From a virus: 20,710 nt of DNA. Shown one piece after another: positions 356-19,724 of this stretch. The stretch lies in IMG/VR virus record IMGVR_UViG_3300035698_019233, positions 1-20,710 of that record; one strand, given 5' to 3'. Within the stretch, counting starts at the first letter, position 1. The number at the start of each line of letters is the position of its first letter. The position numbers were made by a program, and so were the translations under genes. The notes below the pieces were generated by a model. That model did not search any database and had not been told where the DNA came from. It saw nothing but the letters and a program-made list of their open reading frames with translations.

Positions 356-646
356 CTAGCGGTTGGCGTCTATGAGGGCGTAGGCCTTAGCCCGGAGGGT
401 GGGGTCCGAGAGCGAGGCCTCAGCCTCCGCCCAGGCCTCAACCAAGAGGCGGAGTAGGCCCCCGGGGGCCTTGGCCGGCCACCAGGTCAAGCCGATCCCG
501 CCCCGGATGGCCCCTGCTGGATCCCAGCTCTCAGCCCCCGGCTCCCAAACCCGCCACGCGGGAGAGCCGGCCTCAGCGAAGTCCTCTCGCACGTCGAAGC
601 CCTCGCCGCGGAGGAGCTCCACGAGGCGCTCAGCGGGGGAGCTCAC
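356..646 (-). CDS. Unknown small phage protein (96 aa)
   Basis: The frame opens with GTG at 646 and overlaps the stop of the upstream HTH gene by four bases (GTGA), so the two are translationally coupled. The product is 96 residues, with an N-terminal helix (SSPAERLVELLRGEGFDV), a Trp/Gly-rich centre (GIGLTWWPAK) and a C-terminal helix ending ALIDANR. There is no signal peptide, membrane segment or known motif. Coupling to a DNA-binding protein suggests a regulatory or accessory role, but that is inference only. Family not recognised. Confidence 0.65.
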   Translation of the reverse strand: MSSPAERLVELLRGEGFDVREDFAEAGSPAWRVWEPGAESWDPAGAIRGGIGLTWWPAKAPGGLLRLLVEAWAEAEASLSDPTLRAKAYALIDANR

Positions 647-876
647 GAGGTGCGCTCCTTGGCCGGCCGGCCGCGGCGCTCCCCACGAGCTCGCTCGGTC
701 GCCGCGAAGCCCTTAGCCGCCTTCTTGCTGAAGCAATCCCGGCCAATGATCTGGGTGTCATAGGAGAGCTCCCCGGACCGGAGCCTCCGCTTGATCGTCT
801 CGACAGAGACCCCGGCGGCCACCGCGAGTTGCTCACGGTTGTAGAAGGGCAGGTCAAGGAGGAGGCGGATGTCCAC
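643..876 (-). CDS. Small helix-turn-helix DNA-binding protein with AT-hook-like tail
   Basis: This 77-residue protein starts with GTG at 876; GGAG lies seven bases upstream. Residues about 12-50 read as a helix-turn-helix of the excisionase/MerR-like type (NREQLAVAAGVSVETIKRRL, then GELSYDTQIIGRDCFSKKAA). Residues 66-73 contain RRGRPAK, which matches the AT-hook core R-G-R-P that inserts in A/T minor grooves. It is probably a transcription regulator, or an excisionase-like architectural factor. It faces a 435-base non-coding island with repeated GGGTC/GACCC half sites just upstream, so self-regulation is plausible. The downstream gene overlaps it by four bases. The HTH call is fairly firm; the target and role are inferred. 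Confidence 0.75.
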   Translation of the reverse strand: MDIRLLLDLPFYNREQLAVAAGVSVETIKRRLRSGELSYDTQIIGRDCFSKKAAKGFAATERARGERRGRPAKERTS

Positions 877-877
877 G

Positions 878-995
878 GGGTCACTCCGTGGCGGAACCGT
901 TCCCTATTGACCCCGGAGGGGGTCTGATATAGGGTCGATTCTGCCTAGGACCCTCGGCGCGCAACTCTTTTTGACGGACAAGCGCGCCGAGGGTC
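878..995. promoter_or_regulatory. Clustered GGGTC/GACCC half sites, possible operators
   Basis: GGGTC occurs at 878-882, 920-924, 932-936 and 991-995, and its complement GACCC at 909-913 and 949-953. The 909, 920 and 932 copies are spaced 11 and 12 bases apart, roughly one DNA turn, and 909-924 is itself an inverted repeat (GACCCC, four bases, GGGGTC). The cluster lies directly upstream of the HTH gene that starts at 876. This pattern suits an operator region for that protein, but chance is possible in G/C-rich DNA. Confidence 0.35.
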
Positions 996-1047
996 GGTTT
1001 TATGTGAGCCGCAACGGGTTTGAATAACCCTTTGCGGCTCACTTTTT
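940..1047 (+). ncRNA. Candidate small RNA: two tandem hairpins ending in a U-tract
   Basis: Reading the + strand, a perfect 14-bp stem (949-962 with 982-995, 19-base loop) is followed after eight bases by a 17-bp stem with one mismatch (1004-1020 with 1026-1042, 5-base loop) and then TTTTT at 1043-1047. The second hairpin plus U-tract is a textbook intrinsic terminator for + strand transcription. A weak promoter-like pair lies upstream (TTGACC at 907-912, TAGGGT at 930-935, 17-base spacer). No gene in the window runs this way, so a short RNA of about 105 bases is suggested. Alternatively, the hairpins act in minus-strand mRNA ahead of the HTH gene, for example as attenuator or antitermination structures. 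The structures are seen directly; the transcript is inferred. Confidence 0.4.
1004..1047 (+). terminator. Intrinsic terminator, + strand orientation
   Basis: GTGAGCCGCAACGGGTT (1004-1020) pairs with 1026-1042 with one mismatch around the loop TGAAT, and five T residues follow immediately. On the minus strand the stem is not followed by a U-tract, so it is directional and opposes the gene orientation. Confidence 0.65.
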
Positions 1048-1079
1048 AACCCGACGCTCCCACAGGCTCAAGCGCCAAA

Positions 1080-1089
1080 AATATATAAA
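1080..1089. promoter_or_regulatory. A/T-rich -10-like island
   Basis: A/T-rich bases (1077-1089) stand out in otherwise G/C-rich sequence. Read on +, TATAAA at 1084-1089 resembles a -10 box leading into the structured segment that ends at the 1256-1288 terminator. Read on minus, TATATT (1085-1080) could serve the HTH gene. Neither direction has a good -35 box at 16-18 bases, so the direction and even the existence of a promoter are uncertain. Confidence 0.25.
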
Positions 1090-1095
1090 CCCTTT

Positions 1096-1290
1096 GAGGG
1101 TGGGGACTTGCGAGCCGCGGAGGCAAATAGGGACCTCTAACGCGCTCCAAGAGAGCCGATATCGCAGGGGCAAAGCTTGCCGGTGGGGCTGCGAATCTCT
1201 AAAGTCTGGGCCTTCCTTGGCCACAGGCTTTGACAGGTCCTTCCGGTCCCGTCTCAAGAAACCCCGGACTGCAATCCGGGGTTTCTTTGC
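1096..1290 (+). ncRNA. Possible structured + strand RNA (low confidence)
   Basis: This stretch has no supportable gene but holds nested pairings. CGCAG (1163-1167) pairs with CTGCG (1189-1193), enclosing GGCAA (1169-1173) paired with TTGCC (1177-1181). An imperfect 12-bp stem pairs 1201-1212 with 1219-1231 (one G-U pair, one bulge, loop TTCCTT). A perfect 13-bp terminator-type stem ends it. It lies downstream of the TATAAA at 1084-1089. I checked for tRNA features and found no T-loop. It may be a small RNA, or simply the structured 3' untranslated region of the minus-strand gene ending at 1312. Confidence 0.25.
1256..1288. terminator. Perfect 13-bp stem, probably bidirectional terminator
   Basis: AAGAAACCCCGGA (1256-1268) pairs perfectly with TCCGGGGTTTCTT (1275-1287) around the six-base loop CTGCAA. 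Both strands give a G/C core followed by a TTTCTT run, so it can end transcription from either side. It sits 24 bases past the stop of the 476-residue minus-strand gene and is the obvious terminator of that transcript. Confidence 0.8.
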
Positions 1291-1311
1291 GTTCGCGCTG
1301 GATCGCGATCC

Positions 1312-2742
1312 TTAATCGAGCTCAGCGAGGACTAAACGTAGCCAGGTGCGCAGCGGAATAGAGACCCTCAGGGCCTCTATAAGCTCGGATCCCACTGTGG
1401 GAGAAACTCCCGGTGGTAGCCTGAGCACTTCGGCCGGAAACCCTTTGCGGGCCTCGGCTCCAGCCCCAGGACTCTCTCCGATGCTGCAATACACCTCACT
1501 CTTTAGCCCCTCTGCACCTCCTTTGGGTGGCGGGGATTCTAGCGGTTTCTCCCACTCGTCTGTGGGAGACGTGTGGGTGGTTTCTTCTCGAAAGCTCAGG
1601 AGCCGAAGGCAGGAGCGCTTTAGGTCTCGCTTCCACGCGAGCTGGCCCCAGCGGAGGTAGTTATTGATGGTCTTGGCCGCCAGTTCCTGGACCTCTAGCG
1701 AGTCCTGCCACGTGGCTATCACCGACTCCGTGGGGAGACCGATCTCCGCCAGGCGCTTGGCGGCGGTCCTCATGGAGGCCACCGTATTGGCCTTGGCCCC
1801 CTTCTGCTCCACGTGGGCCAGGTGAGCTTTCATCGCGTCGCCTAAGGACAGGCAGGTCCCATTCAGCTCCGCCTCCAGCCGCCTGGCGAGGGACCAAGCC
1901 TCCTCCTTGTCCCGGGTCTTGGCGGACTTCTGGTAGGGCTTCCCGGGCTTCCCTGGGCGCCCCTCGTTCGGCGGAGGGAAGAAACGGAGCTGCCAATTAT
2001 GTCCTTCGCGGCCCTTCGGAGGGCGCGCGGTTACTCGCCATGGCTTTGGCTCAGGTTCCACAAGGTCCAGCTTACCCCTGCCGTCAAGCCCCCTAATAGC
2101 CTCGGCCAAGGACTCAAGGGTCAGGGGAGCGGCAGGGCTGGGAGCCTGGCAAGCATCGCGGAGGAGCGTGGCGACCCAAGGGGCGTAAATCTCCACCCCG
2201 TGAGGGCTCCGCCCGAGCTGAAGGCAGCCCAGAGCCTCCAGCTCCCTAAGCGTATTTAAGACCTGGGCCCTAGGGAGCCGGAGCTTGGCGGAGAGGTCGC
2301 CCAGGACCCCCACTCCCAGTCCTCCGCTCAGGCTCTCCGTGGCGGTTGCCAGAACGGAGATGAGATTGCCCGAGAGGTCAGGCCAGCGCTTGGAGCAAAT
2401 AGCCCGGAACTGGTGGAAGGCGGGAACCCCGTGGCAGATCACGAGGCCAGCCGAAGGGGAGGACTTCTCCATCCGGTAGACACCCCGCGGCGTATTCGCA
2501 AGGAGAACCGAATAGCCAAGCCGGATGGTGGACAAGTCACTGGCGTGGGCTTGATCCGCCAGGGCAACAGGCCAAAGGTCCGAGGTCCCCACTGGCTTCA
2601 GTATATCGACGCCAGCCGCTTCCTGGTAAGCGGGGCTCGCCCAGAGAATCGTATTCTGATCGTCCTTTGCGCACAATACCGCGCGAGGGTCAGCCACCAA
2701 GGCCCTCAACGCGTCAGGCAGCCAGTCAGGCGGGCGGGTCAT
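1312..2742 (-). CDS. PAS-like / winged-helix / integrase-like DNA-binding protein lacking a catalytic domain
   Basis: This 476-residue product starts with ATG at 2742. Residues about 12-115 read as a PAS-like sensor fold (AVLCAKDDQNTILWASPAYQ). Residues about 143-190 form a winged helix (LSAKLRLPRAQVLNTLRELE, then a wing near LGRSPHGVEIYAPW). Residues about 232-293 look like the arm-binding domain of tyrosine integrases (WQLRFFPPP, then SAKTRDKEEAWSLARRLEAE). Residues about 297-372 match the helical core-binding domain (LGDAMKAHLAHVEQKGAKAN, then AKTINNYLRWGQLAWK). The expected catalytic domain with Arg, His-x-x-Arg and Tyr is absent: the last 100 residues are Pro/Ser-rich linker and a short helix, and the other frames do not supply it. 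It probably binds att-like or operator DNA as a signal-responsive regulator, rather than recombining DNA. A decayed integrase is the alternative. The domain reading is by eye. Confidence 0.75.
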   Translation of the reverse strand: MTRPPDWLPDALRALVADPRAVLCAKDDQNTILWASPAYQEAAGVDILKPVGTSDLWPVALADQAHASDLSTIRLGYSVLLANTPRGVYRMEKSSPSAGLVICHGVPAFHQFRAICSKRWPDLSGNLISVLATATESLSGGLGVGVLGDLSAKLRLPRAQVLNTLRELEALGCLQLGRSPHGVEIYAPWVATLLRDACQAPSPAAPLTLESLAEAIRGLDGRGKLDLVEPEPKPWRVTARPPKGREGHNWQLRFFPPPNEGRPGKPGKPYQKSAKTRDKEEAWSLARRLEAELNGTCLSLGDAMKAHLAHVEQKGAKANTVASMRTAAKRLAEIGLPTESVIATWQDSLEVQELAAKTINNYLRWGQLAWKRDLKRSCLRLLSFREETTHTSPTDEWEKPLESPPPKGGAEGLKSEVYCSIGESPGAGAEARKGFPAEVLRLPPGVSPTVGSELIEALRVSIPLRTWLRLVLAELD

Positions 2743-2784
2743 AGATACCGAGAGTCTCCATGACCCGCGGGCAGGATCAACCCA

Positions 2785-15994: not shown

Positions 15995-16447
15995 TTAGCC
16001 TGCCGCAACGGGCGTGATGGTCGCAGTGGGGCGACCGCGATAGGTCACCGTGTAGGGGATCTCGCAATCCGCCTGCTCAGCGGAGAGCTTGACGTAGACC
16101 TTGACCCCCTCCCCGGTGACCTTCCGAGCCGTCAACCGGAGACCGACCCCGGCGGCATTCGTCCCGCTGATCGCAGCCGTGGCATCGTTCGCGTTTGGCC
16201 GGAAGTTGATCCCATCGGGAGCTCCCCCGAGCGTGGCCTGGAGGGTCTCGCTCGTGTGGGTCGCGGCATAACCCGAGGTGGCCTTAGCGAGGTCCAGGGT
16301 CACCTCCAGATCATGGAGGACCTCCCCGTCTCCGCTCGGGACAATCGAAAGGAGCTCAATCCAACCCGTGTAGACCGCCGCGGAGATGTCGATATCCGCG
16401 GTCCCGCGGAAGCGCTGGACCTTCGTGTAGTCCTTGAGGTAGCTCAC
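15995..16447 (-). CDS. Unknown beta-rich head-region protein (150 aa)
   Basis: GTG at 16447 overlaps the upstream stop by four bases (GTGA). The sequence is beta-rich throughout (VYTGWIELLSIVPSGDGEVL, HDLEVTLDLAKATSGYAA, GVGLRLTARKVTGEGVKVYV) and ends with a strand-rich segment (IPYTVTYRGRPTATITP). It has no membrane segment or signal. Two genes after the major capsid protein, a capsid accessory or decoration role is plausible. No family recognised. Confidence 0.75.
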   Translation of the reverse strand: MSYLKDYTKVQRFRGTADIDISAAVYTGWIELLSIVPSGDGEVLHDLEVTLDLAKATSGYAATHTSETLQATLGGAPDGINFRPNANDATAAISGTNAAGVGLRLTARKVTGEGVKVYVKLSAEQADCEIPYTVTYRGRPTATITPVAAG

Positions 16448-16818
16448 TTAGTCCCCGCCTTCTTGGCGGTCTTCTTGGCCGCCTTCTTGGCGGTCTTCTT
16501 GGCCGCCTTCTTGGTCGTCTTCTTCTTGGCCGAGGGCTTCGCCTTGGCCTCTGGCTCCCCGCCGGAAGGAAGGACCCCAGGGAGGAGGACCACGGTGTCC
16601 TCCTCGCCCAGGAGCTCCAGGTCCCCAGGCATAGCGAGGGCGTGGTGGCGGAGCTGGCCCTCCACCACGAAGGCGGAGCCGTCCCCGTTCCCGAGCTGCT
16701 GGGCCTCCAGGATGAACCCGGAGTAGCCCTTGCCCCCTGCCGTCTCCTCCACCCGCTGGGCGAGGAAAAGGCAGGGGTGACCATGGGCGGTCCGGCCCGT
16801 GTGCTTAAACAAGCGCAC
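16444..16818 (-). CDS. Small protein with histone-like Lys/Ala-rich tail (124 aa)
   Basis: GTG at 16818 lies three bases after the capsid gene's stop. Residues 1 to about 85 are beta-type (GYSGFILEAQ, FVVEGQLRHHALAMPGDLEL, DTVVLLPG). Residues about 91-124 are almost only Lys, Ala and Thr in KKxAKK-type steps (AKPSAKKKTTKKAAKKTAKK). That tail resembles the C-terminal tails of histone H1 and bacterial histone-like proteins, which bind DNA without sequence preference. It is encoded by a 24-base tandem repeat. In this context it could contact packaged DNA or the capsid interior, or bind an acidic partner such as the protease tail. Role inferred. Confidence 0.75.
   Translation of the reverse strand: MRLFKHTGRTAHGHPCLFLAQRVEETAGGKGYSGFILEAQQLGNGDGSAFVVEGQLRHHALAMPGDLELLGEEDTVVLLPGVLPSGGEPEAKAKPSAKKKTTKKAAKKTAKKAAKKTAKKAGTK
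16457..16504 (-). repeat. Two perfect 24-base tandem repeats encoding Lys/Ala steps
   Basis: The bases 16457-16480 recur exactly at 16481-16504, and a diverged third copy starts at 16505. On the coding strand each unit gives an eight-residue Lys/Ala/Thr block. Copy number could vary without a frameshift. Confidence 0.85.
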
Positions 16819-18641: not shown

Positions 18642-19724
18642 CTATCCTAGCGAGGAGGTGAAGTCCCCCGCGGTCATTTCTTGTTGGGGGTTGGGCTTCA
18701 GAGACCTTCCGGCCTCCCTCGTGGGTGTTCCGACTGGCTTAAGCCGAGCCGCTCGCTCCTCCAGGAGCGCAGCGCGAGCCCCGCTCAAAGTGGGCTTGGG
18801 CGTTTCGAGCCACCAGGCCTCAGCGAAGTCCCGAAGACTCGCGGGAGCCAGCTCCAGGATCTCGGACTTCATGGCGGCCCGCTTCCGGGCCCGGACCTCC
18901 GAGGGGAGGGAGCGGGCGGACTCGTCGTCCTCGTCGCCCTTGCCCTCGGCGTCCTTGTCCTCGGCGTCCTTGTCCTCGGCGTCCTTGTCCTCGGCGTCCT
19001 TGTCCTCGGACCGCTCGTCCGGGATCTCCTGGCCGCAGGCCTCGCAAGTCTTGGGCTCGTCATCGGCTCGCTCGTCCTCGGCGGCCTCGTCGTCCTTGGG
19101 GTCCTTGTCCTCGTCCGCGGCGGCCCTCGCGGCCTCGTAGAGCCCACGGGGGGCGTTGCCCTTCTTGGTCTTGACCTTCATCGTGTCGTCGTCCTGGCCG
19201 GGATACAGGACCCCGTAGAAAGCGCTCCTCTTGAGCGCGAGTTGATCCGCCGGGATGGCGCAATTTGAGATTTCATGGAGCTCCCACTCATTGCAGATCA
19301 GCGCGGGACCCTTCACGAGGGCCTCGCCCGTTCCGTCCGAGTCACCGTCTCCAAGGCGGAGAATCCGCTTTTCGTTGACCGCGTAGCCGATTGAGACAGC
19401 GCGCAGGAAGTCACCCACCACCAGGTCCCAAGCCAGGTTCCCGAGCTTGGTTGTGGCGTATTCGATTTCCGCGATGAGCTCCCGGGCCTTCAGATCAATC
19501 CGGACCGTGGCCTTTCCGATCAAGCAGGTGATCGACCCCCGGTTGTGGGAGTCCAGCACCACGGGATTGGCGCGAAAGCGCTTGAGCCGCCCGCCCTTCA
19601 TGCGAAGGACCTCGGGACCCCAAGGGGTCATTACCGCAGTCTCCGTGCTTGCCACAAAGGTGGCCTTCCGGGATTCCAGGTCGTGAGACCGGAGCGAAAG
19701 GGATCGGGTCAGGAGCTCAGTCAT
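18642..19724 (-). CDS. Prohead protease, HK97-type, with acidic repeat tail (360 aa)
   Basis: ATG at 19724 overlaps the portal's stop by four bases (ATGA). Residues 1 to about 175 carry the protease: RFRANPVVLDSHNRGSI with candidate catalytic His60, GKATVRIDLKARELIAEIEY, and GDFLRAVSIGYAV with candidate Ser111. ICNEWELHEISNCAIPAD follows, the closing block seen in this family. It probably cleaves scaffold and capsid N-termini inside the prohead. After about 180 the protein is long for the family. It holds an acidic region with four tandem DKDAE-type units (about 241-260), a CEAC motif (227-230) with no obvious second pair, and a helical C-terminus. The tail may serve as scaffold. Confidence 0.8.
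   Translation of the reverse strand: MTELLTRSLSLRSHDLESRKATFVASTETAVMTPWGPEVLRMKGGRLKRFRANPVVLDSHNRGSITCLIGKATVRIDLKARELIAEIEYATTKLGNLAWDLVVGDFLRAVSIGYAVNEKRILRLGDGDSDGTGEALVKGPALICNEWELHEISNCAIPADQLALKRSAFYGVLYPGQDDDTMKVKTKKGNAPRGLYEAARAAADEDKDPKDDEAAEDERADDEPKTCEACGQEIPDERSEDKDAEDKDAEDKDAEDKDAEGKGDEDDESARSLPSEVRARKRAAMKSEILELAPASLRDFAEAWWLETPKPTLSGARAALLEERAARLKPVGTPTREAGRSLKPNPQQEMTAGDFTSSLG
18951..19010 (-). repeat. Four tandem 15-base units inside the protease gene
   Basis: Unit GTCCTTGTCCTCGGC (+ strand) occurs four times end to end, the last with one changed base. It encodes the acidic DKDAE run. The unit is a multiple of three, so copy changes keep the frame. Confidence 0.9.

What the first reader, a model, noticed from the sequence alone, without database searches (positions are those of the whole stretch)
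1312..2742. PAS-like, winged-helix and integrase DNA-binding domains fused, with no recombinase catalytic domain
Seen: a 476-residue frame reading as PAS-like (about 12-115), winged helix (143-190), arm-binding type (232-293) and core-binding type (297-372) segments. The Arg/His-x-x-Arg/Tyr catalytic block expected after that is missing in all frames. Known: tyrosine integrases carry arm and core domains ahead of the catalytic one. Inference: the phage may use an integrase-derived DNA reader coupled to a sensor domain, as a signal-dependent regulator or att-site occupant that works with or against an integrase elsewhere.
Basis: partly seen in the sequence, partly recalled or inferred. Interest (0 to 1): 0.75.

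Follow-up and report, generated by a model that had tools for sequence, protein, structure and literature searches.

The report
Phage integrase lacking its catalytic half
A phage gene carries the DNA-gripping front half of an integrase (the enzyme that inserts phage DNA into the host) behind what looks like a sensor domain, but it has no cutting half; the gene's own coding signal stops exactly where that half should begin, so it is probably a recently cut integrase and only possibly a switch protein.

Summary
The reading frame is real: minus strand, 2742 to 1312, 476 codons. A profile built from 22 real integrases matches residues 267-364, its arm-binding and core-binding part, at 12.7 bits; the best of 200 shuffles scores 2.1. 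The catalytic profile matches nothing in any of the six frames of the whole 20.7-kb record, so the missing catalytic domain is confirmed. A winged helix at about 143-190 has only weak support. The PAS call fails sequence-profile tests, but all 50 listed structure matches of a low-confidence model of residues 1-122 are PAS/LOV-type proteins: plausible, unproven.

New here: phage-like codon usage stops at codon 383, the core-binding/catalytic linker; the last 93 codons look intergenic. Just beyond lies a hairpin-rich island with two short motifs, three copies each, found nowhere else in the window, including a core-site-like dyad. An excisionase/MerR-like gene follows. Best reading: an integration module whose integrase, with an unusual N-terminal extension, was cut, probably recently, before its catalytic domain. 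If made, the product could still occupy its sites as repressor or competitor. A dedicated sensor-gated regulator like SPbeta MrpR is not excluded. No relative was found.

The parts
1312..2742 (-). Whole reading frame, 476 codons plus stop, ATG at 2742
2398..2709 (-). PAS-like segment, residues about 12-115
   Evidence: Suggestive only: profile tests negative; low-confidence model whose 50 listed PDB matches are all PAS/LOV-type, none significant alone
2173..2316 (-). Winged-helix-like segment, residues about 143-190
   Evidence: MarR_2 E 0.0068 below cut-off; CodY wHTH phmmer E 0.39; home-made MarR profile negative
1864..2049 (-). Integrase arm-binding-type segment, residues about 232-293; profile match envelope starts at 244
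   Evidence: Integrase profile; DUF6538 E 0.018
1627..1854 (-). Integrase core-binding (SAM-like) segment, residues about 297-372; profile match ends at 364-369
   Evidence: Integrase profile; Phage_int_SAM_1 E 0.042 and SAM_4 E 0.11
1312..1593 (-). C-terminal tail (codons 384-476) with non-coding-like codon usage; replaces the catalytic domain
   Evidence: Change point at codon 383; lower than all 99 windows of 90 codons from other genes; permutation p 0.0005; chance of a 93-codon stop-free run 0.029
1548..1569 (.). Dyad TCTCCCAC-AGACGA-GTGGGAGA, 8-bp arms and 6-bp spacer: candidate crossover core or operator
   Evidence: one half belongs to the CTCCCACAG family at 1057, 1395 and 1560
1009..1450 (.). 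Four CCGCAAAGGGTTT-type sites at 1009-1021(+), 1025-1037(-), 1087-1099(-), 1438-1450(-): candidate arm-type sites or operators
   Evidence: All four matches in the window lie here; 1 of 100 shuffles reaches 4; two 9-mers present three times each in the island against at most one in 200 shuffles
877..1311 (.). Island with strong hairpins at 949-995, 1004-1042 and 1256-1287; terminators and/or att/regulatory region
   Evidence: Local folding z down to -7.0; repeats; no Rfam family above threshold
643..876 (-). 77-aa HTH protein, MerR/excisionase-like; candidate directionality factor next to the island
   Evidence: phrog_2474 E 1.2e-4, phrog_66 excisionase E 0.0096; HTH_17 E 0.067
2734..2768 (.). 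Hairpin or dyad overlapping the start codon (9-bp perfect stem)

Best explanation
This is the integration module of an uncultured tailed phage (integrase, attP-like island, excisionase-like HTH gene) in which the integrase gene has been cut at the linker between its core-binding and catalytic domains. The integrase had an unusual N-terminal extension of about 230 residues (PAS-like plus winged helix). Shown: arm/core-binding homology, absence of a catalytic domain, loss of coding signal at codon 383, clustered repeats just beyond it. Inferred: the truncation is fairly recent, the repeats are arm-type (CCGCAAAGGGTTT) and core-type (TCTCCCAC dyad) sites, and the protein if made cannot recombine DNA but can still sit on these sites, repressing its own region or blocking another integrase.
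For: Integrase N-terminal profile hits only this frame and the catalytic profile nowhere in six frames; PF00589 absent. Coding signal ends at codon 383, about profile position 150, where the catalytic part starts in real integrases. Tail codon usage equals the intergenic island. Two motif families confined to 1003-1569, and a dyad with recombinase-core geometry 24 nt past the change point. Excisionase/MerR-like gene directly beyond. A distant relative by its head genes carries an ordinary complete integrase (G008).
Against: The 383 codons are intact and have normal phage codon usage, and the 93-codon tail has stayed open (chance 0.029), so the protein may be in use. No relative with an intact catalytic domain was found to prove a loss. 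The att reading of the island is inferred from repeats only; the candidate arm sites are up to 560 bp from the dyad, further than in lambda.
Confidence: 0.48

Rival explanations
1. A dedicated regulator: an integrase-derived DNA reader gated by a sensor domain, binding the repeated sites in the island to control lysogeny, as MrpR does in SPbeta.
For: Intact 383-codon coding region with normal codon usage; repeated sites beside the gene; published precedents: MrpR has lost recombinase function and works as master repressor (PMC10516654), P4 integrase represses through its N-terminal part (cited in PMC8612738), PAS plus HTH senses a signal in phage VP882 VqmA (PMC8284805); all listed structure matches of residues 1-122 are PAS/LOV-type.
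Against: The abrupt end of coding signal at a domain border looks like an accident not yet smoothed by selection. MrpR keeps a catalytic-domain fold, absent here. The sites are only beside the gene, not spread over the 20.7 kb seen. PAS not significant by sequence.
Confidence: 0.25
2. Partition on integration: attP lies inside the integrase gene, as in the archaeal virus SSV1, and this record is the integrated form, with the catalytic half at the other prophage end.
For: The coding signal stops 24 nt before a dyad with core-site geometry; the catalytic half is absent from the record.
Against: The motif families run through the supposed host side (1009-1450), and the genes beyond (643-876, 356-646) have phage-like codon usage and one matches phage families. 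No second att copy is in the record.
Confidence: 0.08
3. Assembly chimera: the metagenome assembler joined the integrase front half to the island of another strain.
For: Virus record from a metagenome collection, probably a fragment; a sharp change of coding signal.
Against: Same strand and phage-like codon usage on both sides; the order int, att, xis makes biological sense.
Confidence: 0.1
4. Not integrase-derived: a lineage-specific phage transcription factor with chance resemblance.
For: No family above a curated cut-off.
Against: Integrase-profile score far above 200 shuffles and 24 other window proteins, two adjacent domains in the right order.
Confidence: 0.05

Closest known systems
Arm-binding-domain tyrosine recombinases (phage/ICE integrases, PF00589 with arm-binding and core-binding domains)
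   Same: Arm-binding end plus core-binding domain in order and contiguous with an integrase profile; att-like repeats and an excisionase-like gene next door
   Different: No catalytic domain in any frame; about 230 extra N-terminal residues
MrpR (YopR), master repressor of Bacillus phage SPbeta (PMC10516654)
   Same: Phage protein derived from a tyrosine recombinase without recombinase function, repeated DNA sites in the phage
   Different: MrpR keeps the overall tyrosine-recombinase fold including the catalytic-domain part; here that part is gone and a sensor-like and winged-helix extension is added; function not tested
VqmA of vibriophage VP882 (PMC8284805)
   Same: Phage regulator with an N-terminal PAS domain ahead of a DNA-binding domain; its structure 7dwm is among the fold matches of residues 1-122
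   Different: VqmA has a C-terminal HTH domain and no integrase part; PAS not proven here
Fusellovirus SSV1 integrase, partitioned on integration (from general knowledge; only partly testable in this window)
   Same: Integrase front half ending at a dyad that could be a crossover core
   Different: Repeats and phage-like genes continue past the dyad; no second half seen

Membership tests
Phage tyrosine integrase | Core-binding (SAM-like) domain | tested here: met
   Integrase profile hit at residues 267-364, 12.7 bits against at most 2.1 in 200 shuffles; Pfam SAM matches weak
Phage tyrosine integrase | Arm-binding domain | tested here: inconclusive
   Only its C-terminal part (from residue 267, envelope 244) aligns; DUF6538 E 0.018
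Phage tyrosine integrase | Catalytic domain with Arg, His-x-x-Arg and Tyr | tested here: not met
   PF00589 none in the record; catalytic profile none in six frames
Phage tyrosine integrase | attP with core dyad and arm-type sites beside int | tested here: inconclusive
   Clustered repeats and a dyad found; no attB/attL/attR comparison possible
PAS domain | Match to PAS profiles | tested here: not met
   No Pfam hit; home-made profiles within shuffles
PAS domain | PAS fold | tested here: inconclusive
   pLDDT 41; 50 of 50 listed PDB matches PAS/LOV-type, best E 0.58; the full-length low-confidence model gave mixed folds
MarR-like winged helix | Profile match above cut-off | tested here: not met
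   MarR_2 17.0 bits against a cut-off of 27; no signal with a home-made profile. A winged helix of another type stays possible
MrpR-like integrase-derived repressor | Tyrosine-recombinase fold including an inactive catalytic domain | tested here: not met
   Catalytic part absent
MrpR-like integrase-derived repressor | Operator element repeated across the phage genome | tested here: inconclusive
   Motifs only at 1003-1569 in the 20.7 kb held; the rest of the genome is not held
MrpR-like integrase-derived repressor | DNA binding and maintenance of lysogeny | not testable with these tools
   Needs EMSA and genetics
SSV-type partitioned integrase | att core inside int, halves at opposite prophage ends | tested here: inconclusive
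   Dyad at the break, second half not in the record

The most novel reading that the evidence does not exclude
A phage lysogeny switch in which a PAS sensor gates a catalytically empty integrase front half, so that a host or environmental signal decides whether the att/regulatory island is occupied.
Probability: 0.17. Interest if true: 0.75.

Novelty: new variant of a known kind. Interest (0 to 1): 0.42.

Why it matters
Integrase-derived repressors are known from SPbeta-like phages (MrpR), and signal-sensing PAS regulators from VP882-like phages. A protein joining both ideas would suggest that integrases can be turned into signal-gated switches by losing the catalytic domain. Even as a cut integrase it is of use: an integrase with a sensor-like N-terminal extension is unusual (no relative turned up), and the break sits on a domain border beside its likely binding sites, which makes the step from enzyme to DNA-binding regulator directly testable.

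Tried and rejected
Relatives of the protein: IMG/VR pattern scans with the whole protein, the PAS core and the arm/core part, GTDB genomes, tblastn in phages and plasmids, 63 related virus and genome records and 396 genomes of the phylum of L087: none; three weak hits looked like chance. Frameshift hiding the catalytic domain: rejected by the six-frame profile. Structured RNA gene in the island: no Rfam family reaches its threshold; the strong folding comes from a few hairpins. Insertion element ending the gene: a 12-nt inverted pair at 1137/1612 has no target duplication and could be chance. Homology of the island to known phages or plasmids: only hairpin-sized hits. Full-length AlphaFold without relatives: uninformative, pLDDT 35; its fold matches are mixed.

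Full report
What is there. The window is a complete record of a virus collection, 20,710 bases, linear, probably a fragment. It holds the head and tail genes of a tailed phage, all on the minus strand (portal, protease and capsid families). The frame of the finding runs on the minus strand from ATG 2742 to the stop at 1312, 476 codons.

Integrase part. Pfam alone gives only sub-threshold hits (DUF6538 E 0.018, Phage_int_SAM_1 E 0.042). I therefore built a profile from 22 integrases taken from related phages and from genomes of the phylum of L087. It matches residues 267-364, contiguous with profile positions 20-133 of 384, at 12.7 bits (15.8 for the fragment 228-400). The best of 200 shuffles reaches 2.1 bits and the best other window protein -0.7. 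Split in two, the N-terminal integrase profile finds only this frame in a six-frame translation of the whole record, and the catalytic profile finds nothing. The Pfam catalytic family is absent too. So the protein has the front of an integrase and no catalytic domain in any frame.

Where the gene really ends. Synonymous codon usage of codons 1-383 matches the other phage genes (0.071). Codons 384-476 score -0.173, like the intergenic island, and the tail is below all 99 windows of 90 codons in other genes. The change has permutation p 0.0005. Codon 383 lies about 19 residues past profile position 133, in the linker after the core-binding domain; in a complete integrase the catalytic part begins there. 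A stop-free run of 93 codons in such DNA has a chance of 0.029. The simplest reading is that native coding DNA stops at the core-binding/catalytic linker and the frame runs on into non-coding DNA.

N-terminal parts. For the winged helix there are a sub-threshold MarR_2 match and a CodY match at E 0.39; a home-made MarR profile gave nothing. For PAS, no sequence profile is significant. A single-sequence AlphaFold model of residues 1-122 has pLDDT 41, yet the 50 Foldseek matches listed from the PDB are all PAS or LOV-type proteins, the best at E 0.58. The equally poor full-length model gave mixed folds. This agreement is suggestive, not proof.

Surroundings. Region 877-1593 is rich in hairpins (local folding z down to -7.0). 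Two motifs occur there and nowhere else in the window: CAAAGGGTT (in CCGCAAAGGGTTT, four copies with at most one mismatch) and CTCCCACAG (three copies). In 200 shuffles of the island at most one such triplicate 9-mer arises. One CTCCCACAG copy is half of a dyad, TCTCCCAC-AGACGA-GTGGGAGA at 1548-1569, with the geometry of a recombinase core site, 24 nt past the end of coding signal. Beyond the island lies a 77-aa HTH gene with MerR/excisionase-type matches. Integrase front, att-like island and excisionase-like gene together read as an integration module; the att assignment is inferred.

Relatives. None of the protein, in phages, plasmids, IMG/VR pattern scans, GTDB pattern scans and 396 genomes. 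The head genes have relatives at about 40-50% identity in some 55 virus contigs and one contig binned as Nitrospiria. Five of 14 of these records searched hold ordinary integrases, one of them checked to have the usual arm, core and catalytic order. The pattern scans reach close relatives only, so 'none found' is not 'none exist'.

How it most likely works. As it stands the product cannot cut or join DNA. If expressed it could bind the island through its arm-binding and core-binding parts, and so repress its region or block a complete integrase acting in trans; that is inference. The abrupt end of coding signal favours a fairly recent cut over an old dedicated regulator. A dedicated regulator has real precedents: MrpR of SPbeta, a recombinase-fold repressor (PMC10516654), repression by the N-terminal part of P4 integrase (cited in PMC8612738) and the PAS-HTH sensor of phage VP882 (PMC8284805). 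Against filing it with MrpR: the catalytic-domain fold is absent, and the candidate sites are not spread over the genome part seen.

Verdict. It is not a member of the tyrosine recombinases as it stands, because the catalytic domain was tested and not met. It is best filed as a new variant of a known kind: a catalytically empty integrase front half with an unusual N-terminal extension.

Noticed in passing
window 2734-2768: A 9-bp perfect stem (15 nt at 87%) overlaps the start codon of the integrase-like gene; translation control or an operator dyad.
   Followed up: partly
window 949-995, 1004-1042, 1256-1287: Three strong hairpins; followed by T-runs mainly on the plus strand although all likely genes here are on the minus strand.
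   Followed up: partly
window 16444-16818: Small gene next to the capsid gene ends in a lysine-rich, histone-H1-like tail (AKKKTTKKAAKKTAKKAAKK...).
   Followed up: no
window 18642-19724: The protease-like gene carries an acidic low-complexity repeat (EDKDAEDKDAEDKDA), scaffold-like.
   Followed up: no
L087, and about 55 loci among L006-L013 and L088-L137: A clade of uncultured phages shares portal, protease and capsid genes with the window at about 40-50% identity but has different tail and early genes; one contig is binned as Nitrospiria.
   Followed up: partly
L140:5300-6600: A relative's record has six copies of ACAGCCCGGAAAGACGGGCACTAG-type repeats interleaved with tRNA-like TpsiC sequences, two of them called as tRNAs; looks like a degenerate tRNA array with a repeated spacer.
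   Followed up: partly
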